From an uncultured Saprospiraceae bacterium (lineage in GTDB: Bacteria > Bacteroidota > Bacteroidia > Chitinophagales > Saprospiraceae), in the NCBI GenBank assembly GCA_937921825.1, contig CAKZVK010000063.1, forward strand, positions 1 to 52,753: a stretch of 52,753 nucleotides of DNA, in the 5' to 3' direction. The notes below the pieces were generated by a model that ran no database searches, was not told where the DNA came from, and saw only the letters and a program-made list of their open reading frames with translations. The translations under genes and the position numbers were made by a program. Positions 20,954 through 42,870 of the stretch are shown piece by piece (within the stretch, counting starts at the first letter, position 1; each line of letters starts with the position of its first letter).

Positions 20954-23900
20954 ATGAGTAGACTAAGTATACTTTCATTCGTTTTCTTCGTATCTCTACC
21001 AGTAGCCTTGGTCAGTCAGTGTGCTACAGGCTATGCTACAGTTACACAACATACACCTGTAGCTAACAGTGCATTATGGTTCAGTTTTACTCAAGTTCAG
21101 AATGCTCCTGATGGAGTAGGGATGGATATCCTTTCTTCAGTGCCTATGAATCCTGGACGTTCTACCTCTATTGTAGGCGTATGGGGGTTTGATATAGATA
21201 TACCGTGTAATGCAACTATTGATAATATATCATTTAATGTCACTAGAAGAAATAATGCCTCAGCTGGATCAGTTGTAGATGAAAATCTACAACTCCGATT
21301 ACCTGATTTCACTTTATCTCCTGTAAATGGAGCTACAGCTACAACTTGGTCTAATTCGACTACAACATGGGAGACCTTTACTTATAATCCTGGTGGAACA
21401 TGGGGTACAACTCTAACACCAGATATAGTTAACGATCATTTATTTGGTTTGGTACTAAGTTTAGAGAATGCATCTACTACAGAAATTGGTTTTCCCGAGA
21501 TAGATGCTATCGAATTGGAAGTCTGCTACACAGTGGTAGGTACTCCATATCCAACTTTAGAGGCAACAATTACTTCCAGCTCTGATAATCTTTGTGATCC
21601 AGTAGGTAATGCGGCGGTAACCATAAATGCGACCGGAGGTTCTGGTTCTTATGAATATAGTATAGACGGTGGTACGACTTGGTCTACGAACTCTACCTTT
21701 TCGTCTTTGGCTTCAGATACTTATTTCCCACAGGTTAGAAATGATAACATGACCTGTGAGTTAGATTTGGGACCATTATATCTTGGTTGTAATGATAACT
21801 CTATCTTACAAGTAGGGGACGCCATATATAGTTGTCTACCTACTCCTAATGATCCAGTGACTCTTGCTATAGACAGGACCCAACCTTTAAGTGATTTTTA
21901 TAGCTCTGGCCAAGTTGGTGTGGATGTATCTCCAGAATTACAGCAAAAGGCTTTTTCTTGGACTGCTGGTGAGTTAGGTGGTTCAGTGTTCGGTGTGACC
22001 TTTGATGATGACAGAAATATATATACGGGAGTCTCATCATTATATAATCTTATCACTGCAGTTACTAATCCGAATTTGTTAGCTATAGATGCTGCCACAG
22101 GAATCCCCACAGTGATTGCGACAGTACCTGGGAACGCAGGAATTGGTCAGCTAGATTATCAATCTGGTTGTGATCAACTATTCGTGGTGAATCTTGATGA
22201 TGGAATAATTTATAGGTACGATACTAATGGTACTCTACTATCTACGTTTGATCCACTGACTCCTGATGATGGAGTAGAAGGTCTAGCAGATCTAGGAGAA
22301 AGAATAGTAGCTGTTTCATATAATTATGGCGAAGACAGATTATATTACTCAGTCTGGTCTAATGATGGAATAAACAATGGAACAAGAAATAGCATAAGAT
22401 CTGTAGCCATTGATCCTGCTACTTGCGATTTCGTTCCGAGTACTGATATACTAGAAATAACAATGCCTTATCTCTCAGAGACCGAGGGTGGAAATCTTAA
22501 TTATAGCATGCCAGTTGTTGATATAGAGTTTGATCAATCAGGTGGCAGCCTACTTATAGCAGAGTCAGGATTTAATTCTACTGTCCCTGTTAGAGTTGCA
22601 CATAGAGCAAGGATATTTAGATATGATGGGATGACGACAAGTTGGTCCATCCAGAATACACCTCCAGCAGGTAACGATGACTATCAATTCGAGATCGGTT
22701 CTATTTTTGGTGGAACTAACGCCTTAGGAGGAGTAGATTTCTCATATGCAGGAATGTCGACTACAGGTTGTGTAACTGGAGAGGATTCATTTATTGTGGC
22801 TACGGGTGATGCCTTATTAGGGACTGATTGCAACTTTGTTGGCTGTATATACGGACTCCAATATATGCCAGTCACTGGTGGTAATCCTACTAATTCAGTA
22901 TTGCTTGATCTTGCCAGAAGTCCCGGAGGACTGCAAAAAGGATTCTTTGGTGATGTGGATGTAGTTAATGGCTGTTGTCCTTGTGCTTGTCCGAACATTC
23001 TTTTTGATATTACAGTAGACCCTAATAACATATGTCAGGGAGATGCAACTTCAATTTGTGTAGAAAACGAATCAGGAGGATCAGGTCCTTATACCTACTT
23101 GTGGTCTTCTAGTTTTACTACAGCTTGTATAAATGAAACCCCAACTACGACTACGACTTATTCTGCAACAGTTACAGATAGTAATGGTTGTTCTGGTGTT
23201 AATTCAATAGAAGTAGTAGTTTCTCCTACGGTTGCAATATCGAATGTTACATCTGTAGATAATACAGATTGTAGTATGGATAATGGAAGTATTACTATTA
23301 CAGCTTCAGGTGGTACAGCGCCTTTAGAGTATAGTATAGATAATGGTGTTACTTATCAGTCAAGTAATATGTTTTCTAGTCTAGGAGCTGGCACATATTC
23401 TATTGTAGTACAGGATGCAAGTAATTGTACAGCGACTAGTAGCGCCACCTTAGCAGGTCCAGGAGCAATTACCATATCGAATGTTGCATCTGTAGATAAT
23501 ACAGATTGTAGTATGGATAATGGAGGTATAACGATTACAGCTTCAGGCGGGACAGCTCCACTTCAGTACAGTATAGATAATGGTGTGACCTACCAGGCAA
23601 GTAATATGTTTTCCGGCCTGGGAGCAGGGACCTATTCGATAGTAGTTCAAGATGCAAGTAATTGTACAGCGACTAGTAGTACAACCTTAGCGGGCCCAGG
23701 AAGTATAGCGATTTCTAACTTGGCAGGAGCTGATGACACCGATTGTTCTATAGATAATGGTAGTATAACCGTATCAGTATCTGGAGGAGTAGCTCCTGTA
23801 GAATATAGTATAGACAATGGCATGACTTTCCAATCTGGTAATGTGTTCAATGATTTAGGAGCCGGAACTTATTCGATAGTCGTTAGAGATGCTAATAATT

Positions 23901-26311
23901 GTACGGCTTCAGGTAGTGCAACCTTAGATGGAGCAGCGGCATTAAACATAGCAAGTGTAGATACTTTAGACGATACAGATTGTGAGGCAGATAATGGCTC
24001 TATAACTATAAACGTATCATCTGGTGCCGCACCAATTATGTATAGTATAGATGGTGGAACCACCTTCGGGACGAGTAATGTCTTTAATAATCTATCAGCG
24101 GGAAGCTATGATATAGCAGTAGAAGATAATGATGGCTGTACAGCTGCTACTATAGTGATGTTATCAGGAGTGACAGCTTACTCTGTGAGTCTAAGTTCTA
24201 CTGATGATACCGACTGCGATAGAGATAATGGGTCTATTACTATTAGTGTCACTGGAGGTACAGCACCGATAGAATATAGTATAGATGGAGGATTGACTTT
24301 TGGTACATCCAATGCGTTTTCTAATTTATCTGAAGGTACATATACAGTAGTTACAAGAGATGCTTCTAATTGTGCAGAATCAACAGATGTTACTCTTGCA
24401 GGTCCTCCAGAGGTTAACTTTACAACTACAGTAGCAGATAACACTGACTGTACCATACCTAACGGAAGTATAACAATCAATGCTACGGGTGGAGTCCCTC
24501 CTTATATGTATAGTATAGATGGAGGTCTGACATTCCAACCAGCTAATTCGTTTTCTAATCTTTTGGATGGCACTTACAATGTTCTAGTTTCCGATTCATT
24601 CAATTGTACTGAATCAGATCAAGGCATACAAATATCAGGACCAGCTTGTGGTGGCACCATTGGTGACAGAGTATGGGAAGACCTAGATGGAAATGGTCAG
24701 CAGGATCCAGGTGAGCCAGGAGTGCCGGAAGTACGTGTAGAACTTTATAACCACCTTGGTAATCTTGTCAGTATCGATTTTACTGACTCTAATGGTAACT
24801 ATAGCTTTGAAGAAGTGTTTGCAGGAGAATACTATATCAGATTTGATAATATAGATGATTTTATACATACCACACCAGATGTAGGAGGAAATGATACTCA
24901 GGATAGTGATGTAGATGACTCTAATGGACCTAACACAACTCCTATATTCACACAGACGGCAGGTGAAATAGATTCAGGATGGGATCTTGGTTTATATAAA
25001 TGTGTTCCTGTCGGTGAATTAGTATGGCTAGACGTGAATGAAAATGGCATGTGGGATAATAATGAGAATGGAATAAATGGTCTTAAAGTGGAACTATATA
25101 AAAATGTAGCCAATCTGTGGATCAAAACTGACATCACTTATACTGGCCATAAACCTAATACTGCATCAGATGATGGGTATTATAAGTTCTGTGTATCTCC
25201 GGGACAATATTACTTGAAGTTTAATAATCCTCCTGATAGATTAGTCAGAACCAGACCAAACCAAGGTACTGAAAATAGAGACAGTGATATTACTGATGCT
25301 TTTGGCCAGGGGACAACTGATGCATTCACAGTAAACTCAGGTGATGAAAGATGTGATGTAGGTGCTGGTTTCGTACCTGCGGGATCTATTGGAGATTTTG
25401 TGTGGGTAGATGATAACGGTGACGGGATAAGGGGTGCAGGAGAACGAGGTCTTCAAGGAGTAGACGTGATGGCTATTAATAGCTCAGGTATGATAGCAAT
25501 GACCACAACAGATGAGGATGGTCAGTATCTGCTAGACTTACTACCTGAGGATCAATATTATCTACAGTTTTCTATCCCAGAAGGCTATACTTTTTCTCCA
25601 CCTAATTTAGGGGATGACTCTAAGGACAGTGATGTCGATGATAGTAATGGTCCTAATACGACACCAGTGTACAATGTTACGCCTGGAGATCATGTAGAAA
25701 ATGTAGATGCAGGTGTTCAGGGTAGCCCACTGCCAGTGACTTGGGTTAGCATAGATGCAGCTAGCGAAGGCAAGAATAATAGTATCGAATGGGTAGTCGC
25801 TACAGAAAAAAATGTGAGCCATTACGAGGTGGAGCATGCTTACAAGAGAGATTCAGAATTCAGCATGCTAGACAGAGTATACTCTGACTACGGTACTTAT
25901 CAAGGTCTACTTACTTATAGTTATCAGCATACAACCTTTGGTGCTGGTCTAAACTACTATAGAGTAAAACAAGTAGACCTAGATGGCAGATCTAGCTACT
26001 CTGATATTGTATCTGTAAGAAATTCTTCAACCGAAAATACAGACGCTTATAACATCAAAGTATTCCCTAATCCAGTACTCGCTGAGTTAAATATTGGAGT
26101 TGATCTAATAAAAGATACTGAGGAATTAGTAGTGAATCTTTATGATAATCTCGGACAGAAGATTGCAGGTAATCTCATCTTAGATATTAGCTTGAGAAAA
26201 GGATATAGATTGTATACACTAGATGTAACAGCTTATCCTCAAGGTGTCTATTCACTAGAGATAATAATAGATAATGATGCAATAGTGAGAAAAATCGCTA
26301 TTACCGAATAA
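20954..26311 (+). CDS. T9SS-secreted giant with SprB repeats and SdrD-B-like domains
   Basis: The protein has 1785 residues. The signal peptide is near SFVFFVSLPVALVSQ. Residues about 25-195 form a beta-rich domain. A first SprB-like repeat (GGSGSYEYSIDGG) lies around 230. About 280-680 is a region with YVTN/beta-propeller flavour (LFVVNLDDGIIYRYDTNGTL). A PKD-like module follows (GPYTYLWSSSFTT), then six tandem SprB repeats of 78-79 residues at about 760-1232. Three SdrD-B-like domains come next (GDRVWEDLDGNGQQDPGEPG, GELVWLDVNENGMWDNNENG, GDFVWVDDNGDGIRGAGERG), two of them ending in DSDVDDSNGPNTTP. A fibronectin-like linker (LPVTWVSIDA) and a T9SS type A sorting domain (VFPNPVLAELNI) close it. 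SprB repeats are known from the Flavobacterium gliding adhesin, so a surface adhesin or gliding role is plausible but unproven. Confidence 0.9.
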   Translation: MSRLSILSFVFFVSLPVALVSQCATGYATVTQHTPVANSALWFSFTQVQNAPDGVGMDILSSVPMNPGRSTSIVGVWGFDIDIPCNATIDNISFNVTRRNNASAGSVVDENLQLRLPDFTLSPVNGATATTWSNSTTTWETFTYNPGGTWGTTLTPDIVNDHLFGLVLSLENASTTEIGFPEIDAIELEVCYTVVGTPYPTLEATITSSSDNLCDPVGNAAVTINATGGSGSYEYSIDGGTTWSTNSTFSSLASDTYFPQVRNDNMTCELDLGPLYLGCNDNSILQVGDAIYSCLPTPNDPVTLAIDRTQPLSDFYSSGQVGVDVSPELQQKAFSWTAGELGGSVFGVTFDDDRNIYTGVSSLYNLITAVTNPNLLAIDAATGIPTVIATVPGNAGIGQLDYQSGCDQLFVVNLDDGIIYRYDTNGTLLSTFDPLTPDDGVEGLADLGERIVAVSYNYGEDRLYYSVWSNDGINNGTRNSIRSVAIDPATCDFVPSTDILEITMPYLSETEGGNLNYSMPVVDIEFDQSGGSLLIAESGFNSTVPVRVAHRARIFRYDGMTTSWSIQNTPPAGNDDYQFEIGSIFGGTNALGGVDFSYAGMSTTGCVTGEDSFIVATGDALLGTDCNFVGCIYGLQYMPVTGGNPTNSVLLDLARSPGGLQKGFFGDVDVVNGCCPCACPNILFDITVDPNNICQGDATSICVENESGGSGPYTYLWSSSFTTACINETPTTTTTYSATVTDSNGCSGVNSIEVVVSPTVAISNVTSVDNTDCSMDNGSITITASGGTAPLEYSIDNGVTYQSSNMFSSLGAGTYSIVVQDASNCTATSSATLAGPGAITISNVASVDNTDCSMDNGGITITASGGTAPLQYSIDNGVTYQASNMFSGLGAGTYSIVVQDASNCTATSSTTLAGPGSIAISNLAGADDTDCSIDNGSITVSVSGGVAPVEYSIDNGMTFQSGNVFNDLGAGTYSIVVRDANNCTASGSATLDGAAALNIASVDTLDDTDCEADNGSITINVSSGAAPIMYSIDGGTTFGTSNVFNNLSAGSYDIAVEDNDGCTAATIVMLSGVTAYSVSLSSTDDTDCDRDNGSITISVTGGTAPIEYSIDGGLTFGTSNAFSNLSEGTYTVVTRDASNCAESTDVTLAGPPEVNFTTTVADNTDCTIPNGSITINATGGVPPYMYSIDGGLTFQPANSFSNLLDGTYNVLVSDSFNCTESDQGIQISGPACGGTIGDRVWEDLDGNGQQDPGEPGVPEVRVELYNHLGNLVSIDFTDSNGNYSFEEVFAGEYYIRFDNIDDFIHTTPDVGGNDTQDSDVDDSNGPNTTPIFTQTAGEIDSGWDLGLYKCVPVGELVWLDVNENGMWDNNENGINGLKVELYKNVANLWIKTDITYTGHKPNTASDDGYYKFCVSPGQYYLKFNNPPDRLVRTRPNQGTENRDSDITDAFGQGTTDAFTVNSGDERCDVGAGFVPAGSIGDFVWVDDNGDGIRGAGERGLQGVDVMAINSSGMIAMTTTDEDGQYLLDLLPEDQYYLQFSIPEGYTFSPPNLGDDSKDSDVDDSNGPNTTPVYNVTPGDHVENVDAGVQGSPLPVTWVSIDAASEGKNNSIEWVVATEKNVSHYEVEHAYKRDSEFSMLDRVYSDYGTYQGLLTYSYQHTTFGAGLNYYRVKQVDLDGRSSYSDIVSVRNSSTENTDAYNIKVFPNPVLAELNIGVDLIKDTEELVVNLYDNLGQKIAGNLILDISLRKGYRLYTLDVTAYPQGVYSLEIIIDNDAIVRKIAITE
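23231..24649 (+). repeat. Six tandem SprB repeats, 237-bp period
   Basis: Repeat starts are at about 23231, 23468, 23705, 23942, 24179 and 24413, so spacing is exactly 237 bases except the fifth (234). Each unit encodes D-x-T-D-C, N-G-S-I-T-I, a Y-S-I-D-(N/G)-G core, F-x-x-L-x-x-G-(T/S)-Y and a final C. Copies 1 and 2 are almost identical in DNA over long stretches; copies 3-6 are progressively more diverged. Confidence 0.9.
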
Positions 26312-32629: not shown

Positions 32630-33190
32630 ATGATTCAGTCAGAGGATAAGTATATTAACTATCTAGTGCACAATGATGCCAATGGTATTAAAGAAATTTA
32701 TGACACCTATTTGCCTAAAGTTCAGGCAATTATTGGCAATATGGGGGGTACAAAGGATGAAGCATGGGAAATCTTCCAAGAAAGTCTGATAGTTATACTC
32801 CAAAAGGCACAAACGCCTGATTTTCAATTAAGTAGCTCTTTTTACACCTTCCTTGTGAGCATCTGTAAGTTCAAGTGGTATAATGAATCGAAGAAAAAAT
32901 ATAAAAAGAACGTTACGATTGAAGATGTGGGAACATTAAAAGTCGAAGAAGATATTGTAGATTCATTATATAAGTTGGAACGATTTCAGCTTTATAAAGA
33001 GAAAATGGCTGAGTTAGGACCAGAATGTAGGCAACTACTAGAGCTCTTCTTTGCCAAAGTACCTCTGAAAGAAATAGCGGTAAGATTAGGTCTGAAGACC
33101 GAAAATGCGGCTAAACAGAAGAAGTACAAGTGCCAAAAGAAACTCATTGAAAAAATAAAGAAAGACGTTAAATACGATCAACTGTTATGA
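32630..33190 (+). CDS. ECF-like RNA polymerase sigma factor
   Basis: The protein has 186 residues. A region 2-like N-terminal half (DANGIKEIYDTYLPKVQAI, then EAWEIFQESLIVILQKA, with an aromatic/basic KFKWYNESKKKYKK stretch that would contact the -10 strand) is joined by a short linker to a region 4-like helix-turn-helix (ECRQLLELFFAKVPLKEIA, RLGLKTENAAKQKKYKCQKK). This is the usual ECF layout without region 3. It is the first gene of the putative signalling and collagen unit, and its last codons overlap the next gene by 4 bases (ATGA), typical of sigma/anti-sigma pairs. No TAnnTTTG element was seen upstream, so autoregulation through another promoter type is possible. Confidence 0.88.
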   Translation: MIQSEDKYINYLVHNDANGIKEIYDTYLPKVQAIIGNMGGTKDEAWEIFQESLIVILQKAQTPDFQLSSSFYTFLVSICKFKWYNESKKKYKKNVTIEDVGTLKVEEDIVDSLYKLERFQLYKEKMAELGPECRQLLELFFAKVPLKEIAVRLGLKTENAAKQKKYKCQKKLIEKIKKDVKYDQLL

Positions 33191-33930
33191 ATATCAACGA
33201 AAACAATAAGTTTAAATTGATCGATGATTACCTTAAGGGTGGTATGAATCAAGACGAAATCGACAGTTTCAAAGCTTTTATGCAGAGTGATAGAGACCTA
33301 GCCTATGATATAGCAATCTCTAAGGAATTAGAGGAAGCTAGTGCATTCAGTTCTATAGAGACGCAGCTAAGAGATACCTTAGGAACCATCAGAAGAGAAG
33401 ATGTAGGATCTGGAAAAGGTCAAAATGCAAGTGCTAATTATTTCAAGATTGCTCTTGTCACCATAGCTCTAACACTGCTTACTTTTATATCATATACTTA
33501 CTTCTCCAAGGTCACGCCAGCAGCCACTAGTGGTCAGCAATTTGCTATGGTAGAGCCTCTAGAATTGAGTACTAAAAGTAATACAGCAACTACAGAGATA
33601 ATCAATATGCAAGCCAGCTATAATGCTGGTGATTACACGACAGCTTTACCTCAGATAAATAATTACCTTAAGTCCAATCCTAGAGATCTGGATGTGCTAC
33701 TCGCAAAAGGTATTGCTCTTACGCAGACAGAATCATATTACCAAGCACAGCAAGTTTTTGCTCTGATGGCCTCTATGAAACCTAGAGTCCAAAAGCACAA
33801 GTGGTATAGTGCCGTAGCTTATACCAAAGAAGGAAAGACGGAGCAAGCAAGAATGATTCTTACAGACATTTATAATTCTAAATCTTACAATCACGAGCAG
33901 GCGAGAAAATTAATGGCTACATTTAATTAA
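33187..33930 (+). CDS. Single-pass membrane protein, likely anti-sigma factor with periplasmic TPR-like domain
   Basis: The protein has 247 residues. A cytoplasmic N-terminal part (1-85) opens with IDDYLKGGMNQDEIDSFKAF, the kind of short helical segment found in Bacteroidota anti-sigma factors and lacking zinc ligands. One membrane span lies at about 87-108 (FKIALVTIALTLLTFISYTY). The C-terminal half (about 135-247) is helical with two or three TPR-like units (YNAGDYTTALPQINNYLKSN, ESYYQAQQVFALMA, KEGKTEQARMILTDIY). Gene overlap with the sigma gene supports a regulatory pair; direct evidence of binding is absent. With its C-terminus outside the membrane it would face the periplasm, the same compartment predicted for the next gene's CHAT domain. 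Confidence 0.78.
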   Translation: MNINENNKFKLIDDYLKGGMNQDEIDSFKAFMQSDRDLAYDIAISKELEEASAFSSIETQLRDTLGTIRREDVGSGKGQNASANYFKIALVTIALTLLTFISYTYFSKVTPAATSGQQFAMVEPLELSTKSNTATTEIINMQASYNAGDYTTALPQINNYLKSNPRDLDVLLAKGIALTQTESYYQAQQVFALMASMKPRVQKHKWYSAVAYTKEGKTEQARMILTDIYNSKSYNHEQARKLMATFN

Positions 33931-33953
33931 TTACTGAATCTAACTTTCAGTGC

Positions 33954-36782
33954 TTGAAGAACATTGCCATTATATTCTTTTCTCTCCTTTGCTCTACAAT
34001 AGCTGCACAGCAACATAATAGCCGTGTTGCTATCGAGAATGCGCTCATTCAGTATAAGGATCTAGATACTGACCCACAATTATTACTGCTAGAAAGAAGT
34101 CTCCAGAAAGCAGAAAAAATGTTTTCTGTCTCGGATACTACGACTGCTAAAGTGTATAAAGCTCTATCAGATTGGTATCGTGATAACTCTGATTTCGATC
34201 TTGCACTCAGTTTCAGTAAGAAGCATTTGGCGTCTCTCATAGATATAGCAGACTATCCGATTAGAACAGCTGAAGCCTATACGCTGACAGCTGAGAGACT
34301 GTTAGAACTCTACAATTTTGAAAAGGCAGGAGAGTACTTTCAGAAAAGTCTTGATCTAAATCAAAGTACCGTCAAAAGTTATGATTTCAGAAATTATAAA
34401 GGCTTAGCGACTGTACTCTTGTCACAAGGCAATTTCAATCTTCAAATCCAGCATGCAAAGTATGCCTACGATCTCGCAGAAACACCTGCTGAAAAATGTC
34501 ATGCCTTGCACTCACAATTTCAAGGGTATGCAAGACTAGGGGATATAGATGCTTGTTATAAGAACATCGAAGAACAACTGGCTATATCCAAAAGGAATAA
34601 GCTAGACTACTGTAGGGGCAGAGCATATTCTAGTCTAGGTTGGGTACATAATCTTAAGGCACGACCACATTACAACGCATATAAAAGAGAGTTAACTAAG
34701 GCTTATGCTAGCAAGTCTTCCAAGACTACTGTGGGCGAAAGTGAGCGAGCTATTGAATTGAAGAAACTATTCGAACCAGATATTAAAGCGTCTATTGGCT
34801 ATTATGATAAAGGTGTATCTTTTCTAAAAGGTAGTGGACATAGAGATGAAATGAGAGCAATCTCATGGGCTTACAAGAATATCAGTAACCAATATAAGGG
34901 GCTGGGAAAATTAGATCTTTCTATACAGTATGCAAAATTAGCTATTCAGGAGAACAGAGCTTTTTTTGGCAAAGAGTATTATCCAGAGCTGGCAGACCTG
35001 TTTCATAATCTATCTACCAAATATTCTCTACCTAAGAAATATGGTGGTCCTGAAGATTATGAATCGGCACTAAGACAGATACAGAATGCTATAAAATGCC
35101 TACTGCAAGACGAGACCTTTTCTGACACCAGAGAAGTTATTCCTCAAGACAAATTATATAAGGTAAGTATCAAGTGGCAATTACTCACTGAGCTTAAAGA
35201 AAAGGCCTTGTGTTATGCGCACCTCTATATCAATCATAAAAATAGAGAGGACCTAGAAAGTGCTGAAAGACATCTGTCCAATGCTGTAGAGCTGATAGAT
35301 ATTATGAGAGCTGAGTTCTCGACTGATGATACCAAAATATTCTGGAGAAATAGAACTAGGTTCATCTACGATACAGCAGTGGAGATAGGTGATTGGCTAG
35401 CGGACAATGATAAGGTGCTAAAGTATATGGAAAAGAGTCGGGCACTCCTGCTGCTAGACGAACTGAATAATAAGGATGCGAAAACCTTTATACCAGATAA
35501 ATTAGCTCAGAGAGAAAAAGACCTCAGAGATGCCTTTGTAGATGCAGACGAGAGTGACATATTGCAGTATAAGATTTATAATACCTACTTGGACTCACTG
35601 AAAGAGGCTTATCCTAGTTATTATAAATATAAGTTTGATGTAAGGACACCATCTCTACTAGAAGTGCAATCGGAAATCCTAGATGATTCTACACAAGTGC
35701 TAAGTTATCACATTACTAACGATAGCTTGTATATGTTGAATGTTACTAAGAAGTCCTCTAGTCTTAGTACGCAAGCTAATCCAAGAATGCTCAAGCCCAA
35801 AGTGCAAAGATTTCTAAGTCTGCTAAACAATAAGGATAGTCTAGAATTCCAAAAGAACTATGAAGAGTTTATCGGCCTCTCTAAGGAGCTGAAGACGATT
35901 CTGCTTTCGGGTATGAATCCGACTATTCCCAAGGTGATAATAGTAGGGGATGGTATTATAAATTATGTGCCGTTTGATGTTTTGTCAAAAGAAAATGCTG
36001 ACGGGTCGCCTAGGTTTATGATTGAGGATTATACCTTTAGTTTTGCACCCTCTCTGTCTGTTCTACTAAAGTATACTGAGGCTAAGGAATTCAATCAGTT
36101 ATTAATGATTAGTCCTAGGAGTTTTTTAGATCAAAATCTAATACCCTTGGCTCAGAGTGATGAAGAGATAGAGGAAATAAAGAACATTACCAATACAGCA
36201 ATTCTGGAATCTGATGCGGCTACGCTGACCAATTTCATTGAGGTCTGTAAGGAGTATGACGTTATTCATTTTTCTACACATAGTGGTATACGAGAAGACA
36301 CGAATGAGCCTTGGATTGCATTCCAAGATTCATTGATCAGTCTGAACGAAATCTATAAGCTCAATCTTGATGCTTCTCTGGTAACCTTGAGTTCATGTAA
36401 GAGCTATGATGGGGTAGACAGAAGTGGCGAAGGTATTAATAGTTTATCAAGAGGCTTTCTATTTGCAGATGCTGCTGCTGTAGTCGGCAGCATGTGGGAC
36501 CTTAATGAGTCCGCAGGTAGGAATATCCTCGTAGAGTTTTACAAAGGCATAAAAAACAAGAAAGATAAAGCGACTGCACTTAGAGCCGCTAAGCTTCAAT
36601 TTATAAATGATAATAGATATAAATCACCCTATTATTGGTCTTCTCTTATCTTGATAGGGGACTCTGATCGACTTTCTTCGACTCCACAGGCTAGCGGTAT
36701 CAATATATTATATCTTATGTCTTGTATTGGGCTACTTCTGTTAGCTCTGTTTTATCTCAATTTTAGAACAAAAAAGCCTTAG
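33954..36782 (+). CDS. TPR-CHAT caspase-like protein, exported and membrane-anchored
   Basis: The protein has 942 residues. The start is TTG at 33954: it gives a classical signal peptide (MKNIAIIFFSLLCSTIAAQQ) and no in-frame ATG lies nearby. Residues about 30-500 are a run of TPR-type helices (for example YFQKSLDLNQS, AISWAYKNISNQYKGLGKLD, ESALRQIQNAIKCL). About 630-905 is a CHAT (caspase HetF-associated with TPRs) domain: VIIVGDGIINYVPFDVLS, then YDVIHFSTHSGI with His776 and LVTLSSCKSYDG with Cys815, then GINSLSRGFLFADAAAVVGS and SPYYWSSLILIGD. Both dyad residues are intact, so a cysteine protease activity is plausible. A final span (about 915-935) precedes RTKKP, so the protease domain should lie in the periplasm. 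It follows the anti-sigma-like gene by 23 bases. Confidence 0.88.
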   Translation: MKNIAIIFFSLLCSTIAAQQHNSRVAIENALIQYKDLDTDPQLLLLERSLQKAEKMFSVSDTTTAKVYKALSDWYRDNSDFDLALSFSKKHLASLIDIADYPIRTAEAYTLTAERLLELYNFEKAGEYFQKSLDLNQSTVKSYDFRNYKGLATVLLSQGNFNLQIQHAKYAYDLAETPAEKCHALHSQFQGYARLGDIDACYKNIEEQLAISKRNKLDYCRGRAYSSLGWVHNLKARPHYNAYKRELTKAYASKSSKTTVGESERAIELKKLFEPDIKASIGYYDKGVSFLKGSGHRDEMRAISWAYKNISNQYKGLGKLDLSIQYAKLAIQENRAFFGKEYYPELADLFHNLSTKYSLPKKYGGPEDYESALRQIQNAIKCLLQDETFSDTREVIPQDKLYKVSIKWQLLTELKEKALCYAHLYINHKNREDLESAERHLSNAVELIDIMRAEFSTDDTKIFWRNRTRFIYDTAVEIGDWLADNDKVLKYMEKSRALLLLDELNNKDAKTFIPDKLAQREKDLRDAFVDADESDILQYKIYNTYLDSLKEAYPSYYKYKFDVRTPSLLEVQSEILDDSTQVLSYHITNDSLYMLNVTKKSSSLSTQANPRMLKPKVQRFLSLLNNKDSLEFQKNYEEFIGLSKELKTILLSGMNPTIPKVIIVGDGIINYVPFDVLSKENADGSPRFMIEDYTFSFAPSLSVLLKYTEAKEFNQLLMISPRSFLDQNLIPLAQSDEEIEEIKNITNTAILESDAATLTNFIEVCKEYDVIHFSTHSGIREDTNEPWIAFQDSLISLNEIYKLNLDASLVTLSSCKSYDGVDRSGEGINSLSRGFLFADAAAVVGSMWDLNESAGRNILVEFYKGIKNKKDKATALRAAKLQFINDNRYKSPYYWSSLILIGDSDRLSSTPQASGINILYLMSCIGLLLLALFYLNFRTKKP

Positions 36783-36807
36783 TTGACTATTACCTTATTG
36801 TAGTCAA
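36783..36807 (+). repeat. Inverted repeat between the CHAT and small T9SS genes
   Basis: TTGACTA (36783-36789) pairs with TAGTCAA (36801-36807) across an 11-base loop, overlapping the end of the CHAT gene. There is no T-run, so it does not look like a terminator. It could modulate mRNA stability between the signalling and structural genes. The remaining gap to 36884 shows only weak short pairings. Confidence 0.35.
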
Positions 36808-36884
36808 GGAGATTAATAACTGAGACGCATTCAATTGCGGTCACGTTCGCCATTATTAGCGAGAATTCTAAATAGATTAACATT

Positions 36885-37358
36885 ATGAATAAATTATTTC
36901 TGTTAGCTGGACTGTTTCTATCCTCGAATCTTGTAGGGCAGTCTATATCAAGCTATGTAATTACTTCTGCGGGAGATGCCATCATGAGTGATGAGGGTGC
37001 ACTTTACTTATCTATAGGTGAGCCGATGAATACAGAGCTTACTGGAGGAGAAGTAATGATCTCACAAGGTTTTCTTCAGGTGACTATTGCAGATAGGATT
37101 CTTAACTCTGAAGAACTGCTAGAAGAGTCAGTCACTGTCTATCCTAATCCCGTAGCGGAGGAGCTAAGATTTGATCTCGAGGATGCCTACGAGCAATATT
37201 CATTGAGGGTATATAATACCAGCGGACAGATCATTCATACTACTGAAAGCTTGTCTTCATCTAGACTAAATGTAAAGGACTATTCCGTAGGTACTTATTT
37301 TCTGACTCTACATAAGGATAATAAGAGCAGCAGGGCTGTTCAATTTATAAAACTATAA
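36885..37358 (+). CDS. Small secreted protein with T9SS type A sorting domain
   Basis: The protein has 157 residues. The signal peptide is MNKLFLLAGLFLSSNLVGQ. A short beta domain (SSYVITSAGDAIMSDEGALY, LSIGEPMNTEL, GGEVMISQGFLQV) is a common Bacteroidota unit found just before a sorting signal. A T9SS type A C-terminal domain follows from about residue 80 (VTVYPNPVAEELRFDL ... LRVYNTSGQII ... YSVGTYFLTL ... VQFIKL). It should be exported through the T9SS and anchored to or released from the surface. It stands between the CHAT gene (102 bases upstream) and the three collagen-like genes (9 bases downstream). That location suggests it serves the collagen proteins, perhaps as a surface attachment factor, which is inference. 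Confidence 0.82.
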   Translation: MNKLFLLAGLFLSSNLVGQSISSYVITSAGDAIMSDEGALYLSIGEPMNTELTGGEVMISQGFLQVTIADRILNSEELLEESVTVYPNPVAEELRFDLEDAYEQYSLRVYNTSGQIIHTTESLSSSRLNVKDYSVGTYFLTLHKDNKSSRAVQFIKL

Positions 37359-37367
37359 GAATTGACT

Positions 37368-38393
37368 ATGAGATTATCACTAATCATATCCTTAGTTATG
37401 ATGACTGCTTTGCTCTTGGCACAGCAGCCCATACGATATCAGGGAATAGCCTTTGATAGTAATGATGAGCTTATAGCCGCATCAGATTTCTCTTTACGAG
37501 TGGCAATTAGAAAAGACAGTGATTCTGGCACCTTGGTCTACTTAGAAAACCATAATGCTCAAAGTGATGAAGCCGGTGTCTTCGAAATATTTATCGGTGC
37601 TGGTGAGGCTGTTCAGGGCACTTACCCTGATATTCCTTGGAGCCAAGGAAGTTACTATGCAAACATATCTATAGATCCTAATGGGTCTATAAACTATATA
37701 TACGCTGGAAGTACAGAGCTGCTATCTGTCCCTTATGCCTTTCATGCAATGGAGGCTTATCGAGGACCCACTGGGGAAGATGGTCTAGATGGACCAGATG
37801 GTCCTCAAGGGCCACAAGGCGCTACTGGCCCCCGAGGAGCCAATGGAGTTCAAGGCCCTATTTGTCCACCATCACCCGATGGCGGAATAGGTCCACCAGG
37901 CCCAGCGGGCCCACCAGGTCCAGCAGGACCCCAGGGGCCTAAAGGTGATCCAGGTCCGAAAGGTGATACCGGTCCAGCAGGACCAACAGGTCCTCAAGGA
38001 AGAGCTGGAGGCCCTAAAGGTGAGCCAGGAAGAGCAGGACCTCCTGGTCCCAATGGTCCACAAGGGCCAGCAGGTCCTATGGGTGATGTAGGACCACAAG
38101 GTTCCTCTGAAGGACCAGCAGGCCCTATAGGACCAGTAGGTGATAGAGGTGATGTCAATGGTCCACCTGGCCCTAAGGGAGAACCCGGTCCTGCAGGACC
38201 ACAGGGTCCAGCAGGAGCAGTCGGACCACAAGGACCAGAAGGTGCTCCAGGTGCCCCCAAAGAAGATATACTCTCAGTAGTACCTGACCCCAATGTGCGC
38301 ACTTTCTACTTGGACGATGGCTCCAATAGATTAGATGGGAAAGCTGGTTTTAGATACTATTCTAATGCAGATGGCCTCTGGATAGATTTATAA
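37368..38393 (+). CDS. Collagen-like protein, chain 1
   Basis: The protein has 341 residues from the ATG at 37368 (a TTG two codons upstream is less likely). The signal peptide is [19 protein letters not shown]. An N-terminal beta domain of about 110 residues ([10 protein letters not shown] ... [10 protein letters not shown] ... [13 protein letters not shown]) precedes a Gly-X-Y stretch of 26 triplets, a 4-residue unit, 10 triplets, a 4-residue unit, 4 triplets, a 4-residue unit and 11 triplets. Triplet 12 has Cys in place of Gly (CPP) and triplet 13 has Ser. A C-terminal domain follows, ending [19 protein letters not shown] ... WIDL. There is no T9SS sorting domain. The C-terminal motif is shared with the next two chains. 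Likely a surface or extracellular triple-helical fibre. Confidence 0.88.
37764..38258 (+). repeat. Gly-X-Y collagen repeat of chain 1
   Basis: Parsed in blocks of 26, 10, 4 and 11 triplets separated by the four-residue units GRAG, GSSE and GDVN. Proline is frequent at X (second) and Q, K, A or P at Y (third). Confidence 0.9.
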
Positions 38394-38417
38394 ATTTCAA
38401 AAATCTAAATCGCTATT

Positions 38418-39461
38418 ATGAATAAGTTTGTAATTCTCGTCCTGTTGTTATGTATAGCTGGTTTGGCTTCGGCACAAGTGCCCGCTTCATTTTCTTACCA
38501 AGGGATAGCTAGAGATGCTAGTGGTGAGACCTTAACGAATAGCGCCTTAGGCTTAAGGTTCTCCATCTTAGACAGTGATATCAATGGAAATATATTGTAT
38601 CAGGAAGAAACAATTACTGAAACCACAAGCATCGGGCATTTTGGAGTCCAAGTAGGTAAGGGGCAGGTCTCTTTGGGAGATTTTCTCGCTATAGATTGGT
38701 CTGTAGCACAACATTACTTGCGTATAGAGCTTGATGCTGAGGGAGGAACTAATTATACTAATCCGATTACTATTCCACTAACAGCAGTCCCCTATGCTTA
38801 TGCGGTAAACTCTTCTGGTAATAGACCAGTAGGACTACCTGGTAAAGATGGAGCAGATGGTGCTGCTGGATTAGCTGGCCCGAAAGGAGCTCAAGGCCCA
38901 ATGGGTTTGCCAGGCCCACAAGGACCGCAGGGCCCCTTAGGTAGTGTAGGACCAATAGGTCCTCAGGGCCCACAAGGCCCCCAAGGTCCGCAAGGGCCAC
39001 AGGGAGATCCTGGAGGAGAACCTGGAGACCCAGGCCCTCAGGGTTCTAAAGGACCAACAGGTCCAGATCAAGGAATACAAGGAGATCCAGGTCCTCAAGG
39101 GCCGCAAGGCGAACAAGGTCCTGATGGACCTAAAGGACCTGACGGTCCACAAGGACCAACAGGACCACCCTCTAATATTGTAGGACCAGAAGGCCCTCAA
39201 GGACCAGAAGGTCCAAATGGCGGTCCTCCAGGTCCAGTAGGTGATCAAGGTCCACCTGGACCCAATAGTCCAGATGGGGTAGATGGTCCAGTAGGAGTAC
39301 CAGGTGTAAGATTTTATAATTACAGAACCTTCAATATGAGTAGCGAACCTAATACCTCTTATGAAGTGCTCGGCGCATTATATATCGATGATGGAACCAA
39401 TAGATTAGACGGCAGACCTGGTTTTAGAATGTATGATGGTACTAATTGGATAGACCTTTAA
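38418..39461 (+). CDS. Collagen-like protein, chain 2
   Basis: The protein has 347 residues. The signal peptide is [20 protein letters not shown]. The same N-terminal beta domain as chains 1 and 3 is present ([20 protein letters not shown] ... [10 protein letters not shown] ... [13 protein letters not shown]). The Gly-X-Y part has 19 triplets, GDPG, 5 triplets, GPDQ, 10 triplets, GPPS, 4 triplets (the first, NIV, lacks Gly), GPNG and 10 triplets. No Cys occurs in the collagen part. The C-terminal domain is longer than in chain 1 and ends [20 protein letters not shown] ... WIDL. It begins 24 bases after chain 1. Role as for chain 1; with chains 1 and 3 it may form a heterotrimer. Confidence 0.88.
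38832..39311 (+). repeat. Gly-X-Y collagen repeat of chain 2
   Basis: It contains a near-homopolymeric run of five consecutive G-P-Q triplets around 38960-39002 with varied codons, so the run is kept by protein selection and not by DNA slippage. Confidence 0.9.
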
Positions 39462-39471
39462 ATTGAGAAGA

Positions 39472-40515
39472 ATGAAAAATTATCTAACTATTCTTTTGAG
39501 CATTTGTGTGGTTTCTCTTTTTGGGCAGCTGCCAGACGCCTTTACTTTCCAAGCCATTGCTATGGATATGAATGGCGAGGTCGTGACAAATAGTGCAATC
39601 GGATTACGAAGTTCTATCTGGCAAGGTGGACCTTCAGGTTCCAGGGTATATTCTGAAGTGCATACGCTTATGAGTACAGACCTTGGGCATATAAATATGG
39701 AGATTGGGAGAGGAACTCCTGAAGGAACTCATCAAGATATAACACTATTGGATTGGTCTCAAGGCAATCATTATTTGCAATTGGAAATGGATGTGACTGG
39801 TGGTAGTGACTATAGAGAAATAGGATTTGTAGAACTAGTTTCTGTGCCCTATGCCTTATATGCCGATCTAGATTTGTCAGGAATAAAAGGCCCTAGAGGT
39901 CAAGCTGGAAGAATGGGTGCTATGGGACCAATTGGACCCATCGGAGACCCTGGGCCTCCAGGAATCCAAGGGACTATGTGCCCGATAGGTCCTGCTGGTC
40001 CGCGCGGCCCTGCTGGACCTCAAGGCCCTGCTGGACCACAAGGACTACCTGGTCCCAAGGGTCCTAGTAAAGGCTACACAGGTCCTTATGGACCTGTTGG
40101 TCCTCAGGGTGACCCTGGTGATCCTAATGGCCCACAAGGTGAGCAAGGACCACAAGGTCCATTCGGGATACCTGGTATACCAGGTAATCCAGGCCCTAAA
40201 GGAGATCCAGGCCCAGTAGGTCTGGGAGGAGGCCCTGCTGGACCTCCAGGTCCCAAAGGTCCGAAAGGTCCAGATGAAGGTATCCAAGGACCTAGAGGTC
40301 CTCAAGGTATAGCAGGACAAGCAGGTAGACCAGGTCTTCCAGGACCGGCAGGAACTCCAGGACCTGACGGAATCGGAGAGCTGAATGTGAGAGATGTAGA
40401 GCCAGATTTTACAGTAGAAAGATTATACATTGATACTGGAGAAAATAGAGCAGATGGACAGGCTGGAATGAGATTCTACGATCTCAATCTAAGAGCATGG
40501 ATAGACTTGTATTAG
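39472..40515 (+). CDS. Collagen-like protein, chain 3
   Basis: The protein has 347 residues from the ATG at 39472; a TTG three codons earlier would overlap the previous stop region and add only M-R-R. The signal peptide is [19 protein letters not shown]. The N-terminal beta domain is [16 protein letters not shown] ... [12 protein letters not shown]. The Gly-X-Y part has 20 triplets, GPSK, 5 triplets, GDPN, 10 triplets, GLGG, 4 triplets, GPDE and 11 triplets. Triplet 12 is CPI, so Cys replaces Gly at the same place as in chain 1. The C-terminal domain ends [20 protein letters not shown] ... WIDLY. It starts 10 bases after chain 2 and is the last gene before a terminator, so it probably closes an operon beginning with the sigma factor. 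Confidence 0.88.
39880..40377 (+). repeat. Gly-X-Y collagen repeat of chain 3
   Basis: It has the same block lengths after the first 26 units as chain 1 (10, 4, 11 triplets). The interruptions have quite different residues from chains 1 and 2 but sit at matching places. Confidence 0.9.
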
Positions 40516-40536
40516 TAAGAGAAGATAAGATTAGAT

Positions 40537-40572
40537 AAAAAAGGGTGATCAATTAATTTGATCACTTTTTTT
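40537..40572. terminator. Bidirectional intrinsic terminator between collagen chain 3 and pcrA
   Basis: A perfect 8-bp stem (40545-40552 with 40558-40565) with 5-base loop, a run of T on the right (40566-40572) and a run of A on the left (40537-40542). It can therefore end the plus-strand operon and the minus-strand helicase gene. Confidence 0.87.
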
Positions 40573-40596
40573 GAAGTAGCTAATTGTAAATCTTTG

Positions 40597-42870
40597 TTAC
40601 TCTACTATCTGCAATCTTGCAAAGTCAAGCATTATTCTTTTTTCAGCGTTTTCAGTAAGATTTTCGAATCTGATGGAAGCAACATTTCGTTCATCGATAC
40701 TTAAGATCTTACCTTGACCAAACTTTAGGTGAAGTACCGTCTGCCCAGCCTTTAGTTCTGATATAGAATTTGGTTTGAAATCTTTTGGATCTATACCTAA
40801 GGCCTGAGGTTGAGCTTTAGAAAGTTTTTTGAAGTTTCCTAGGACACGTGGTTCCTTAAAACTTGGTTTCTTCGAAATGCTAATATTGGCTTCTAGATTT
40901 TTTTCAGAAATTTCTTCTAAGAATCTACTAGAATCATTGAATCGCATGTTACCGTATTGGTAGCGACTATTGGCATAAGTAAGCGTCAGTAATTCCTCAG
41001 CCCTCGTAATCGCTACATAGAATAATCTTCTCTCTTCATCTATCTGATCAGGAGAAGAAAGGGACATATAAGACGGAAATAAATTTTCTTCCAGTCCTAC
41101 CACGAAGACAGATCTGTACTCCAGCCCTTTGGCTGCATGTACTGAAAGTAGGGTCACGGTGTCTACATTATCTTTATCCTCGTCGGCATCGGTCATCAGT
41201 GAGATGCTTTGAAGAAATTTTGATAGGGTTCTTTCTTGATCATTGATATCTTCCCCAGCATCTAAGACATCATCTTCTGTAAATTCTTGGATACCATCTA
41301 AGAGGGCATTAATATTATCCATACGGTTTTGTGCTTCTACAGAATTCTCTGATTTGAGCAGATCCATAATTCCTGATCTCTTGACTATGTAGACAGCGGC
41401 TTTGTAGGCATTAAGATTTTGAGCTTTGTCCTGACAGGTTCTGATGATGGATACAAAGTCTCCTAGTTTCTTTTTAGCGCCCTTGGATAATTCTATTTTG
41501 CTTAAGCACTGCCAGATAGAAATTTCGTTATCATTGGCGAGGTTGGTGAGATTCTCCATGGTCGTCTTACCTATACCTCTCTTAGGATAGTTGATTATCC
41601 TTTTGAGTGCTTCGTCGTCTTTGGAGTTTATCGATAGCCTAAGGTAGGCCACTACGTCTTTTATTTCTTTTCTCTGATAGAAGGACATACCTCCATATAT
41701 CCTATAGGGGATATTATATCTTCTGAGATGTTCCTCGAAGACTCTAGACTGCGCATTCGTCCTATAGAGGACTGCGATATCTTTATTCGCTAAGTTGAAT
41801 CTGTTCTTCTGTTCTATAATGAGGTCGGCCACTCTTTTGCCTTCTTCATTATCCGTCATCGCTTTGATGACCTTTATCTTACTGCCACCATCTTTCTCTG
41901 TCCAGATTTCCTTTTGTATCTGTCTTTGGTTATTGCCGATGACTTCATTAGCGGCAGAAACGATGTAATTTGTAGATCTATAATTTTGTTCTAGCTTGAA
42001 AGTACGGACATCGGGAAAGTCGTTTTCAAACTGTAAAATATTTTCTATCGTAGCTCCACGAAAGGAGTAGATGGATTGGGCATCATCACCTACAATACAA
42101 ATGTTGTGCTTACTGTCTGGGTAAATGGCGAATAGCTTTAGTATCTCATACTGTAAGAAATTCGTATCCTGAAACTCATCTACTAGAACATACTGAAACT
42201 GACGTTGGTACTTTGTTCTGATGTTGTCCGGATTGGTATACATGAGCTTAAACATCTGCAGCAGTAGGTCATCAAAATCCATAGCACCTGCTCTCTTACA
42301 CTTGGCAACATACTTAGAGTAGATGAGATGAGTCATCGGTCGTCTATTCATCCTGTCGTGCTCCATCAGTTCCTCATTAGCCGTATACATCTTAGGGGTG
42401 ATGAGATTACTTTTAGCACTGGATATTCTAGACTTGACTGCGCCGACATTATATTCTTTGGTGGTTAAGCCTAGACTCTTGATGACTTCCTTCAGTACAC
42501 TTTTGGTATCATCAGTATCATATATACTGAAGTCGTTAGGGTAGTCTAATCTGTGAGCCTCTACTCTTAGTATTCGAGCGAATAACGAGTGAAAGGTACC
42601 CGCCCAAACTTTGTAAGCATCTCCTCCTACCACTTTTTCTATCCTGTCTTTCATTTCACGAGCCGCCTTATTCGTAAAGGTCAGTGCAAGAATCTGCCAT
42701 GGTGGAACTCCCGACTTTAGCAAATGTGCAATTCTAAAGGTTAATACTCTAGTTTTGCCAGAACCTGGCCCAGCTATTACCATGACTGGTCCATCTGTAT
42801 TGACGACAGCTTGTCTTTGTATGTCGTTAAGACTGTCGAGATAGTGGGCGGAGGTATCTAATTCTTGCAT
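40597..42870 (-). CDS. pcrA: UvrD/PcrA-type ATP-dependent DNA helicase
   Basis: The protein has 757 residues. It is a superfamily 1A 3'-5' helicase for nucleotide-excision and replication repair. Motifs visible: Q-motif LNDIQRQAV, Walker A AGPGSGKT (33-40), ALTFTNKAAREMKDRI, GTFHSLFARIL, Walker B VLVDEFQDTN, GDDAQSIYSFRGA, LEQNYRST, VAVLYRTNAQSR-type motif IV (here IAVLYRTNAQSR), LLSVHAAKGLEYRSVFVVGL and LFYVAITRAEELL. The C-terminal about 55 residues (AGQTVLHLKFGQGKILSIDE) form the Tudor-like fold that binds RNA polymerase in PcrA. UvrD and PcrA cannot be told apart reliably in this phylum. A TACCTTTC sequence at 42900-42907 (minus) is a near match to a -7 element. Confidence 0.94.
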   Translation of the reverse strand: MQELDTSAHYLDSLNDIQRQAVVNTDGPVMVIAGPGSGKTRVLTFRIAHLLKSGVPPWQILALTFTNKAAREMKDRIEKVVGGDAYKVWAGTFHSLFARILRVEAHRLDYPNDFSIYDTDDTKSVLKEVIKSLGLTTKEYNVGAVKSRISSAKSNLITPKMYTANEELMEHDRMNRRPMTHLIYSKYVAKCKRAGAMDFDDLLLQMFKLMYTNPDNIRTKYQRQFQYVLVDEFQDTNFLQYEILKLFAIYPDSKHNICIVGDDAQSIYSFRGATIENILQFENDFPDVRTFKLEQNYRSTNYIVSAANEVIGNNQRQIQKEIWTEKDGGSKIKVIKAMTDNEEGKRVADLIIEQKNRFNLANKDIAVLYRTNAQSRVFEEHLRRYNIPYRIYGGMSFYQRKEIKDVVAYLRLSINSKDDEALKRIINYPKRGIGKTTMENLTNLANDNEISIWQCLSKIELSKGAKKKLGDFVSIIRTCQDKAQNLNAYKAAVYIVKRSGIMDLLKSENSVEAQNRMDNINALLDGIQEFTEDDVLDAGEDINDQERTLSKFLQSISLMTDADEDKDNVDTVTLLSVHAAKGLEYRSVFVVGLEENLFPSYMSLSSPDQIDEERRLFYVAITRAEELLTLTYANSRYQYGNMRFNDSSRFLEEISEKNLEANISISKKPSFKEPRVLGNFKKLSKAQPQALGIDPKDFKPNSISELKAGQTVLHLKFGQGKILSIDERNVASIRFENLTENAEKRIMLDFARLQIVE

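What the first reader, a model, noticed from the sequence alone, without database searches (positions are those of the whole stretch)
37368..40515. Three tandem collagen chains with interruptions kept in register: candidate heterotrimeric bacterial collagen
Parsing each chain into triplets shows the same block plan. Chain 1: 26 triplets, interruption, 10, interruption, 4, interruption, 11. Chain 3: 20 triplets + GPSK + 5 triplets (26 units), interruption, 10, interruption, 4, interruption, 11. Chain 2: 25 units, interruption, 10, interruption, 4, interruption, 10. Every interruption is a single extra residue (G-x-y-z), yet the residues differ in all three (for example GSSE, GPPS, GLGG). A triple helix of different chains needs matched interruptions, as in C1q A/B/C, whereas three independent homotrimers would not. 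Known bacterial collagens are generally treated as homotrimers. Common ancestry by duplication is the simpler rival explanation.
Basis: partly seen in the sequence, partly recalled or inferred. Interest (0 to 1): 0.85.

Follow-up and report, generated by a model that had tools for sequence, protein, structure and literature searches.

The report
Three-strand bacterial collagen gene set
Three neighbouring bacterial genes appear to encode three different strands built to twist together into one collagen rope, although bacterial collagens are generally described as made of three identical strands.

Summary
In detail: three adjacent collagen genes (37368-40515) share interruption positions. I found 20 such triads in 8 genomes, five in the window's own genome. 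In the 8 long triads of the window's genus: (1) Interruption positions match within triads and differ between them; 27 of 43 sites are in all three chains and 2 in one (0 of 5000 class-preserving shuffles). (2) Chain classes c1, c2, c3 split before the triads multiplied (only c2 reaches the tool's top support mark), and X/Y residues match no better within triads than with permuted triplets; tandem duplication or gene conversion therefore does not explain the register. (3) Across all 12 long triads plus one short triad, 16 of 20 collagen-core cysteines have a partner at the same level in another chain (2.7 expected). (4) Lys/Arg-Asp/Glu pairs peak at the axial salt-bridge distance in one cyclic direction, c1>c2>c3>c1: 57 forward, 18 reverse, 29 same-chain; forward leads in 8 of 8 triads. 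Best reading: an A:B:C collagen heterotrimer, displayed with a type IX-secreted companion. No biochemistry or structure prediction was available. Chain order is not confirmed in the second family or the short triads.

The parts
36885..37358 (+). Companion gene, 157 aa: signal peptide by eye, N-terminal part, C-terminal type IX secretion (Por) sorting domain
   Evidence: Pfam PF18962 E=1.9e-11, TIGR04183 above cut-off. A similar gene lies directly upstream of 13 of 13 clusters of the genus that have upstream sequence
37368..38393 (+). Collagen chain 1 (c1; TTG 37362 is the alternative start)
   Evidence: (PF01391 E=2.4e-20)
38418..39461 (+). Collagen chain 2 (c2)
   Evidence: PF01391 E=1.1e-17
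39472..40515 (+). Collagen chain 3 (c3; TTG 39463 is the alternative start)
   Evidence: PF01391 E=7.6e-19
37368..37739 (+). c1 signal peptide (by eye) and N-domain up to VPYA
   Evidence: NF053851 Bdello_MAT_N E=5.8e-7, 29.4 bits, below cut-off 60
38418..38798 (+). c2 signal peptide (by eye) and N-domain up to VPYA
   Evidence: NF053851 E=3.3e-8, 33.5 bits, below cut-off 60
39472..39855 (+). c3 signal peptide (by eye) and N-domain up to VPYA
   Evidence: NF053851 E=7e-4, 19.4 bits
37764..38258 (+). c1 collagen core
38832..39311 (+). c2 collagen core
39880..40377 (+). c3 collagen core
39012..39014 (+). c2 interruption site 1, extra residue (c3 has it, c1 does not)
40069..40071 (+). c3 interruption site 1, extra residue
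38007..38009 (+). c1 interruption site 2, extra residue
39069..39071 (+). c2 interruption site 2, extra residue
40126..40128 (+). c3 interruption site 2, extra residue
38109..38111 (+). c1 interruption site 3, extra residue (GSSE)
39171..39182 (+). c2 interruption site 3, SNIV; a similar S-N type insert is in all 8 long c2 chains of the genus
40228..40230 (+). c3 interruption site 3, extra residue (GLGG)
38157..38159 (+). c1 interruption site 4, extra residue
39219..39221 (+). c2 interruption site 4, extra residue
40276..40278 (+). c3 interruption site 4, extra residue
37863..37865 (+). c1 cysteine in place of Gly, 41 residues after VPYA
39979..39981 (+). c3 cysteine in place of Gly at the same position, 41 residues after VPYA; c2 has none
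38307..38390 (+). c1 C-terminal cap (YLDDG...WIDL)
39381..39458 (+). c2 C-terminal cap
40426..40512 (+). c3 C-terminal cap

Best explanation
The locus encodes one A:B:C heterotrimeric collagen fibre. Composition and register are written in the sequences. Interruptions sit at matched levels, so the chains fit one another best. Lys/Arg at Y on one chain faces Asp/Glu at X of the next triplet on the next chain in the cyclic order c1>c2>c3>c1; the best fit in the genus is c3 leading, c1 middle, c2 trailing. A Cys pair, here c1-c3, can lock two chains by a disulfide (inferred). The companion gene carries a type IX sorting signal and probably anchors or nucleates the fibre on the cell surface (inferred). 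Shown from sequence: register match, class ages within the genus, absence of gene conversion, Cys pairing, directional charge pairs, the companion. Not shown: the protein complex itself, its function or its ligand.
For: 20 triads in 8 genomes; their 17 clusters each hold exactly 3 or 6 collagen frames on the sense strand within 3 kb. Within-triad interruption F1 0.773 against 0.444 for the same class in other triads, 0 of 10000 shuffles. Sites in 3/2/1 chains are 27/14/2 against 15.0/24.4/17.2 by chance. c1, c2 and c3 form separate groups in 8 long triads. X/Y identity within triads 36.0% against 35.7% permuted. Cys partners 16 of 20 against 2.7. Inter-chain charge pairs, lags 1-3: 134 against 87.7 sd 7.3, 0 of 400; window triad alone 27 against 13.8, 0 of 400; obs/exp 1.73 within triads, 1.08 across. 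Direction: 57 forward, 18 reverse, 8 of 8 triads; no like-charge peak in the forward direction. Of 27 ordered assemblies the three ABC assemblies in 1>2>3 order rank first, and zero slip is best of 81 registers. Interruptions: 6.82 per 100 triplets in long triads, 0.76 in 27 other collagens. Directionality of axial Lys-Asp pairs: passages of PMC7824840.
Against: c1 lacks some interruptions of c2 and c3, so the strict Gly-phase match is modest (0.686 within, 0.608 same class across). 16 of 43 sites in the genus are not in all three chains. Four of 20 core Cys have no partner. In the second family (G019) lags 1-3 are not significant (35 against 27.2, 25 of 400) and the order is unclear: residue lags favour forward 21:14, block-anchored counts favour reverse c3-c2-c1, 14 against 6.6, 0 of 500. 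Short triads have no interruptions and few charges; reverse (12) exceeded forward (9). With pairs that could stem from own-chain KGD-like motifs removed, the signal falls to 68 against 51.3, 1 of 300; for the window triad 14 against 9.0, 19 of 300. Opposite-direction lags -3..-1 are also somewhat raised (103 against 86.5, 3 of 300). A c1 homotrimer scores 10 against 12 for c3-c1-c2 in the window triad, and 11 against 8 in triad C. Counting chains in threes is partly built into how triads were picked.
Confidence: 0.87

Rival explanations
1. Three independent homotrimers whose block plan is alike only because the genes arose by tandem duplication within each locus.
For: The chains are homologous in N-domain and cap, neighbours share a layout, and c1 alone of the window makes a well-paired homotrimer on paper (10 pairs).
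Against: In the genus the classes are older than the triads, yet registers agree within triads and not within classes. X/Y identity is at the permuted level. Charge pairs are directional and hetero-chain; inherited homology gives no direction. c2 and c3 of the window make 0 and 2 pairs as homotrimers.
Confidence: 0.04
2. Gene conversion between neighbouring collagen cores keeps the layouts alike without any shared helix.
For: Repeats recombine readily, and only the repeat-bearing cores need to be exchanged.
Against: No residual X/Y similarity within triads. Highest identity of a within-locus DNA match of at least 40 bp in triads A-C is 83%. All 8 long c2 chains keep an S-N type insert at the third site, though c1 of B and G011a and c3 of G012a carry similar inserts at other sites. 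Conversion predicts neither paired Cys in two of three chains nor one-way charge pairs.
Confidence: 0.02
3. The three chains meet as separate homotrimers bundled side by side, so matched kinks reflect higher-order packing and not one helix.
For: Matched bends would also suit a bundle; bundles of collagen stalks exist in C1q (recalled).
Against: The charge peak sits at the one-triplet axial distance inside a triple helix with one cyclic direction. Same-chain pairs are rarer than forward hetero-chain pairs (29 against 57). A Cys level present in only two of the three chains is not expected of homotrimers.
Confidence: 0.02
4. Heterotrimers of looser make-up (for example AAB, or c2-c3 with c1 optional).
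For: c1 misses interruptions; c2-c3 match best in the genus (F1 0.89 against 0.70 and 0.72).
Against: c1 is in the strongest charge pairs (c1>c2 23, c3>c1 20). Assemblies with one chain used twice score at most 38 against 55.
Confidence: 0.05

Closest known systems
Bacterial collagen-like proteins (Scl1/Scl2 of Streptococcus, Lcl of Legionella)
   Same: Gly-X-Y stalk, non-collagen domains at the ends; NCBIfam hits to SclB, SclA and Lcl models, far below cut-off.
   Different: [quoted passage not shown] Here there are three distinct chains with matched register. The chains end in WIDL or WIDLY without an LPXTG motif (read).
Animal heterotrimeric collagens with interruptions (C1q A/B/C, collagen IV) - recalled
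   Same: Three different chains, interruptions at matched levels, Cys between chains, charge pairs that help set the register (recalled for the animal proteins).
   Different: No detected homology beyond the Gly-X-Y repeat; different end domains; a four-gene bacterial cluster.
Mosaic adhesive trimer (MAT) fibres of Bdellovibrio (PMC10769870, passages)
   Same: Signal peptide followed by a beta-rich domain of about 130 aa, then a trimeric fibre; NF053851 matches the N-domains weakly.
   Different: The word collagen does not occur in that paper's main text; the fibres shown there are beta-helices with trimeric tips. Score here is below the family cut-off.
Designed ABC collagen peptides with axial Lys-Asp pairs (PMC7824840, passages)
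   Same: Directional inter-chain Lys-Asp/Glu pairs fixing composition and stagger.
   Different: Those are synthetic; this is a natural, replicated gene set.

Membership tests
Collagen-like proteins (Pfam PF01391) | Gly-X-Y triple-helix repeat above gathering score | tested here: met
   72.5, 63.9 and 67.7 bits against 27.2
Scl/Lcl bacterial collagen adhesins (NCBIfam equivalogs) | score above the equivalog cut-off | tested here: not met
   SclB 100, 86, 85 bits against 325; Lcl 77, 66, 73 against 500
Heterotrimeric collagen | three distinct chain genes kept together | tested here: met
   17 clusters examined, each with exactly 3 or 6 chains; clusters were picked as triads, and N-domain collagen genes of other families also occur singly, in pairs or in unequal sets
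Heterotrimeric collagen | interruptions at matched levels among partner chains | tested here: met
   not absolute, 16 of 43 sites in the genus missing in at least one chain
Heterotrimeric collagen | inter-chain charge pairs with one chain order | tested here: met
   met in the 8 long triads of the genus; second family and short triads do not confirm it
Heterotrimeric collagen | isolated protein contains three different chains | not testable with these tools
MAT fibre family (NF053851) | N-domain above the family cut-off | tested here: inconclusive
   29.4, 33.5 and 19.4 bits against a cut-off of 60, E down to 3.3e-8
MAT fibre family | beta-helix fibre with S74 or other adhesive tip | tested here: not met
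Type IX secretion cargo (companion gene) | Por C-terminal sorting domain, with PorU in the genome | tested here: met
   PorU 1161.5 bits against cut-off 420
C1q / collagen IV homology | C1q or NC1 end domains | tested here: not met
   Pfam shows only Collagen in c1-c3; the N-domain profile has no PDB sequence relative below E 0.13

The most novel reading that the evidence does not exclude
One bacterium carries several mutually exclusive ABC collagen heterotrimers (five triads in this genome). Each locus has its own code of matched interruptions, one-way salt bridges and paired cysteines that selects its own three partners and a fixed stagger. That would be a natural, orthogonal set of heterotrimeric collagens without animal-type processing, displayed by a type IX-secreted companion.
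Probability: 0.55. Interest if true: 0.93.

Novelty: new variant of a known kind. Interest (0 to 1): 0.87.

Why it matters
[quoted passage not shown] Natural bacterial ABC collagens would show that chain selection and register can be coded within short chains, would supply many natural solutions to compare (20 triads here), and might be simple to express in laboratory E. coli. They would also suggest an independent origin of heterotrimeric collagen outside animals (inference).

Tried and rejected
Rejected: tandem duplication and gene conversion as full explanations. Phage tail fibre: PHROG hits lie mainly in the repeats, and the neighbours are a Por-tail gene, a CHAT/TPR protein and a helicase-like gene (the last judged by eye). 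RNA element: no Rfam match at gathering score in 36000-41500. Promoter/terminator scan: 12 promoter-like sites against 6.8 in shuffles and 3 terminator-like against 3.1; not used.

Weaker or negative tests kept in the account: strict Gly-phase metric, strict charge test, short-triad charge test, G019. Searches for more triads at family, order and class level (match lists capped) were followed up at selected loci only. These gave single genes, pairs (some of near-equal length), and three sets of three unequal lengths (L181, L231, L235); G115 gave a different kind of triad.

Method limits: interruption parsing uses my own dynamic-programming costs. EF-like loops were cut out before register tests, and their cysteines left out of the Cys count, as were N-domain cysteines. 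In one search two chains without a found anchor (G011b c1, G012a c2) got a default offset of 10; searches used 12 for G012a c2, and searches used 10. CALIHL01 was aligned by core start. The G019d c3 frame is shortened at its start and was left out of the tree. The charge lag +2 was expected beforehand from known geometry; the direction was first seen in the genus data and then tested on G019 and the short triads without clear confirmation. The extension to two units for trailing-to-leading is my derivation. Triads B and G011a, and G019c and G019d, are close relatives and not independent.

Odds: after rechecking, the confidence went from 0.90 to 0.87, because counting in threes is partly built into the selection and the window's c1 homotrimer scores close to the heterotrimer.
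Full report
WHAT IS THERE. Three collagen genes, 343, 347 and 350 aa by the ORF tool, follow one another with gaps of 24 and 1 bases (10 if c3 starts at its ATG). A 157-aa gene with a type IX sorting tail ends 3 bases before the first frame, 9 before its ATG. Measured from VPYA, interruptions lie at 89/123/139 in c1 and 71/90/124/140 in c2 and in c3. c1 misses the first one. c2 has an SNIV insert at the third. c1 and c3 carry a Cys in place of Gly at exactly the same position, 41 residues after VPYA.

THE GENOME HOLDS MORE. A search of the window's own genome led to four further triads: B, C, and the adjacent D and E. Searches of relatives raised the total to 20 triads in 8 genomes: 5 in G000, 3 in G003, 3 in G011, 2 in G012, 1 each in G007 and G009, 4 in G019 (another family of the order), and 1 in the named record CALIHL01, uncultured Saprospiraceae (L080). 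By matching contig lengths, G003, G011 and G012 are MAGs titled Saprospiraceae and G019 a MAG titled Chitinophagales. The triads form 17 clusters, and a recount of sense-strand collagen frames within 3 kb gives exactly three or six in each of the 17. Triad C and the G019c/d cluster lie next to contig ends, so genes beyond them cannot be excluded. G006 has two chains at a contig end and was not counted. Since clusters were picked as triads, this count is not an independent test; in genomes outside the genus, N-domain collagen genes also stand singly, in pairs or in unequal sets. Of the 14 genomes of the window's genus searched, six hold complete triads (G000, G003, G007, G009, G011, G012).

REGISTER. 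In the 12 long triads interruption positions match within triads (F1 0.676, n=36 pairs) and much less between same-class chains of different triads (0.322, n=198) or different-class chains (0.319, n=396). For the 8 long triads of the genus the values are 0.773 (n=24), 0.444 (n=84) and 0.434 (n=168). No class-preserving shuffle of 10000 reached the observed value in either set. Site by site in the genus, 27 sites are in three chains, 14 in two and 2 in one; shuffles give 15.0, 24.4 and 17.2. For G019 alone the result is weaker: 8, 4 and 4 against 4.5, 7.0 and 8.5, with 140 of 5000 shuffles as high. A stricter test on exact Gly phase is also weaker: 0.686 within, 0.608 same class across, though the class-preserving shuffle still reached the observed value only once in 20000; in G019 this measure is no higher within triads than across (0.593 against 0.686 and 0.592). 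In triad B the c1 and c3 chains hold a Cys-bounded loop after about 11 triplets and c2 has none there, while the later interruptions stay in step.

NOT COMMON DESCENT. A tree of N-domains puts the c1, c2 and c3 chains of the eight long triads of the genus in three separate groups (support 92/94, 98/98, 94/89; only c2 starred by the tool). In the five short triads in the tree each class is also a group, all three starred. The classes thus predate the spread of triads within the genus, and the layouts changed in step. In G019 the gene positions do not map simply on these classes. X/Y residues at aligned places are 36.0% alike within triads, 37.9% for the same class across triads, and 35.7% with triplets permuted, so there is no sign of gene conversion.

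CYSTEINES. Of 20 core cysteines outside the loops in the 12 long triads and CALIHL01, 16 have one in another chain within 5 residues (random mean 2.7, 0 of 20000); 14 within 3 residues (random 1.78, 0 of 20000). The bearing pair differs: c1-c3 in A, c1-c2 in C, c2-c3 in G011b, c1-c3 in G019b, c1-c2 in G019c and G019d. CALIHL01 has a 1-2-1 set. G019c and G019d are close relatives and not independent. The four without a partner are G003b c2, one in G011b c2, and one each in G019c c1 and G019d c1. All 7 short triads have two Cys in c1 and one in c3 at fixed places by the collagen start, and one in c2 near its N-terminus; in five of the seven, c3 has a second Cys 8 residues earlier.

CHARGES. In the triple helix, axial Lys-Asp/Glu contacts run one way round the strands (PMC7824840, passages). 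In the genus, K/R on one chain and D/E on another at +1 to +3 residues occur 134 times against 87.7 (sd 7.3) when triplets are shuffled locally, 0 of 400; for the window triad alone 27 against 13.8, 0 of 400; the cross-triad control is 1.08 times expectation against 1.73 within; G019 alone is not significant (35 against 27.2, 25 of 400). K-K and D-D coincidences are not raised in the genus, while lags -3 to -1 are somewhat raised (103 against 86.5, 3 of 300). Anchoring units at shared interruptions sharpens this: c1>c2 23, c2>c3 14, c3>c1 20, against the reverse c2>c1 1, c3>c2 10, c1>c3 7. Forward exceeds reverse in 8 of 8 triads; by plain residue lags it is 6 of 8 with two ties. Among 27 ordered assemblies c3-c1-c2 (leading-middle-trailing) scores 55, its two cyclic forms 51 and 46, the best other 38, and the three homotrimers 28, 18 and 19; in single triads c3-c1-c2 is best or tied in 6 of 8. 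Zero slip gives 55; the other 80 registers average 22.4, maximum 51. In the window triad it makes 12 such pairs (null 3.7, 0 of 500), against 10, 0 and 2 for the homotrimers of c1, c2 and c3. Against: in triad C a c1 homotrimer scores higher, 11 to 8; G019 prefers the opposite order in this test (14 against 6.6, 0 of 500); the short triads say nothing clear; and the strict version that excludes own-chain motifs is weaker (68 against 51.3, 1 of 300).

CONTRAST. Interruptions that shift phase number 132 in 1936 triplets of the long triads plus CALIHL01, 0 in 355 of the short triads (a set that again includes CALIHL01), and 22 in 2910 of 27 other collagen frames or fragments, which stand singly or in pairs or unequal sets; 17 of these 22 are in two proteins, one of which (G256) reaches 6.06 per 100. 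Interruptions are thus a habit of the long triads and rare in most other collagens looked at.

COMPANION. A gene of the type seen at 36885-37358 lies directly upstream of 7 of 7 long clusters of the genus with upstream sequence (C is at a contig end), and a longer gene of about 520 aa upstream of 6 of 6 short clusters. The sorting domain was verified by Pfam for A, B and D/E; the others were recognised from their sequence only. In CALIHL01 such a gene lies between c1 and c2 (by eye). None was seen within 600 bases upstream of the G019ab cluster, and G019cd starts at a contig end. PorU is in the genome.

LITERATURE. Searches, most with capped lists, listed no paper whose title or abstract start tells of a natural bacterial collagen heterotrimer; 'collagen-like protein' with 'Saprospiraceae' gave no paper, and 'collagen-like' with 'heterotrimer' and 'Bacteroidota' none from 2019. 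The library holds open-licence papers only. [quoted passage not shown] Passages of PMC13138384 added nothing on bacterial heterotrimers.

CONCLUSION. Several lines from sequence - register, class age, cysteines, one-way charge pairs - agree on one A:B:C triple helix per locus. The complex itself, the role of the companion and the function of the fibre remain to be shown.

Noticed in passing
L189:2050-5968 (G115, same family): Another kind of triad: three N-domain proteins of 370, 362 and 370 aa with a short collagen stretch and an Lcl_C-type tip (above cut-off in one of three), with a Por-tail gene between two of them.
   Followed up: partly
L080:5789-8702: Short triad of another Saprospiraceae MAG with cysteines 1-2-1 in the three chains, each 35-36 residues after the N-domain anchor (added up), and a Por-tail-like gene between c1 and c2.
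   Followed up: partly
L228, L229, L233: Tandem pairs of N-domain collagen genes of nearly equal length (e.g. 472 and 468 aa) in other families, L228 and L229 beside contig ends; possibly parts of larger sets.
   Followed up: no
L181, L231, L235: Three N-domain collagen genes in a row but of unequal lengths, e.g. 409, 515 and 1770 aa; not analysed for register.
   Followed up: no
L014 and L012 (own genome, contigs 83 and 118): Open frames running off contig ends with very long, regular collagen repeats and Cys-bounded DxNGDG loops; possibly one gene split by assembly.
   Followed up: no
Triads B, C, G011a, G012a: Loops of about 28-30 aa (C-[WFY]-D...NGDG...DC) resembling calcium-binding loops, inserted in one, two or three chains at matching levels.
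   Followed up: partly
window 23237-23769: Two 237-base repeats, 85% matching, within the 1785-aa frame at 20954-26311.
   Followed up: no
window 32630-36782: Sigma-70-like gene, a protein with a weak TPR match and a TPR-CHAT protein directly upstream of the collagen cluster.
   Followed up: no
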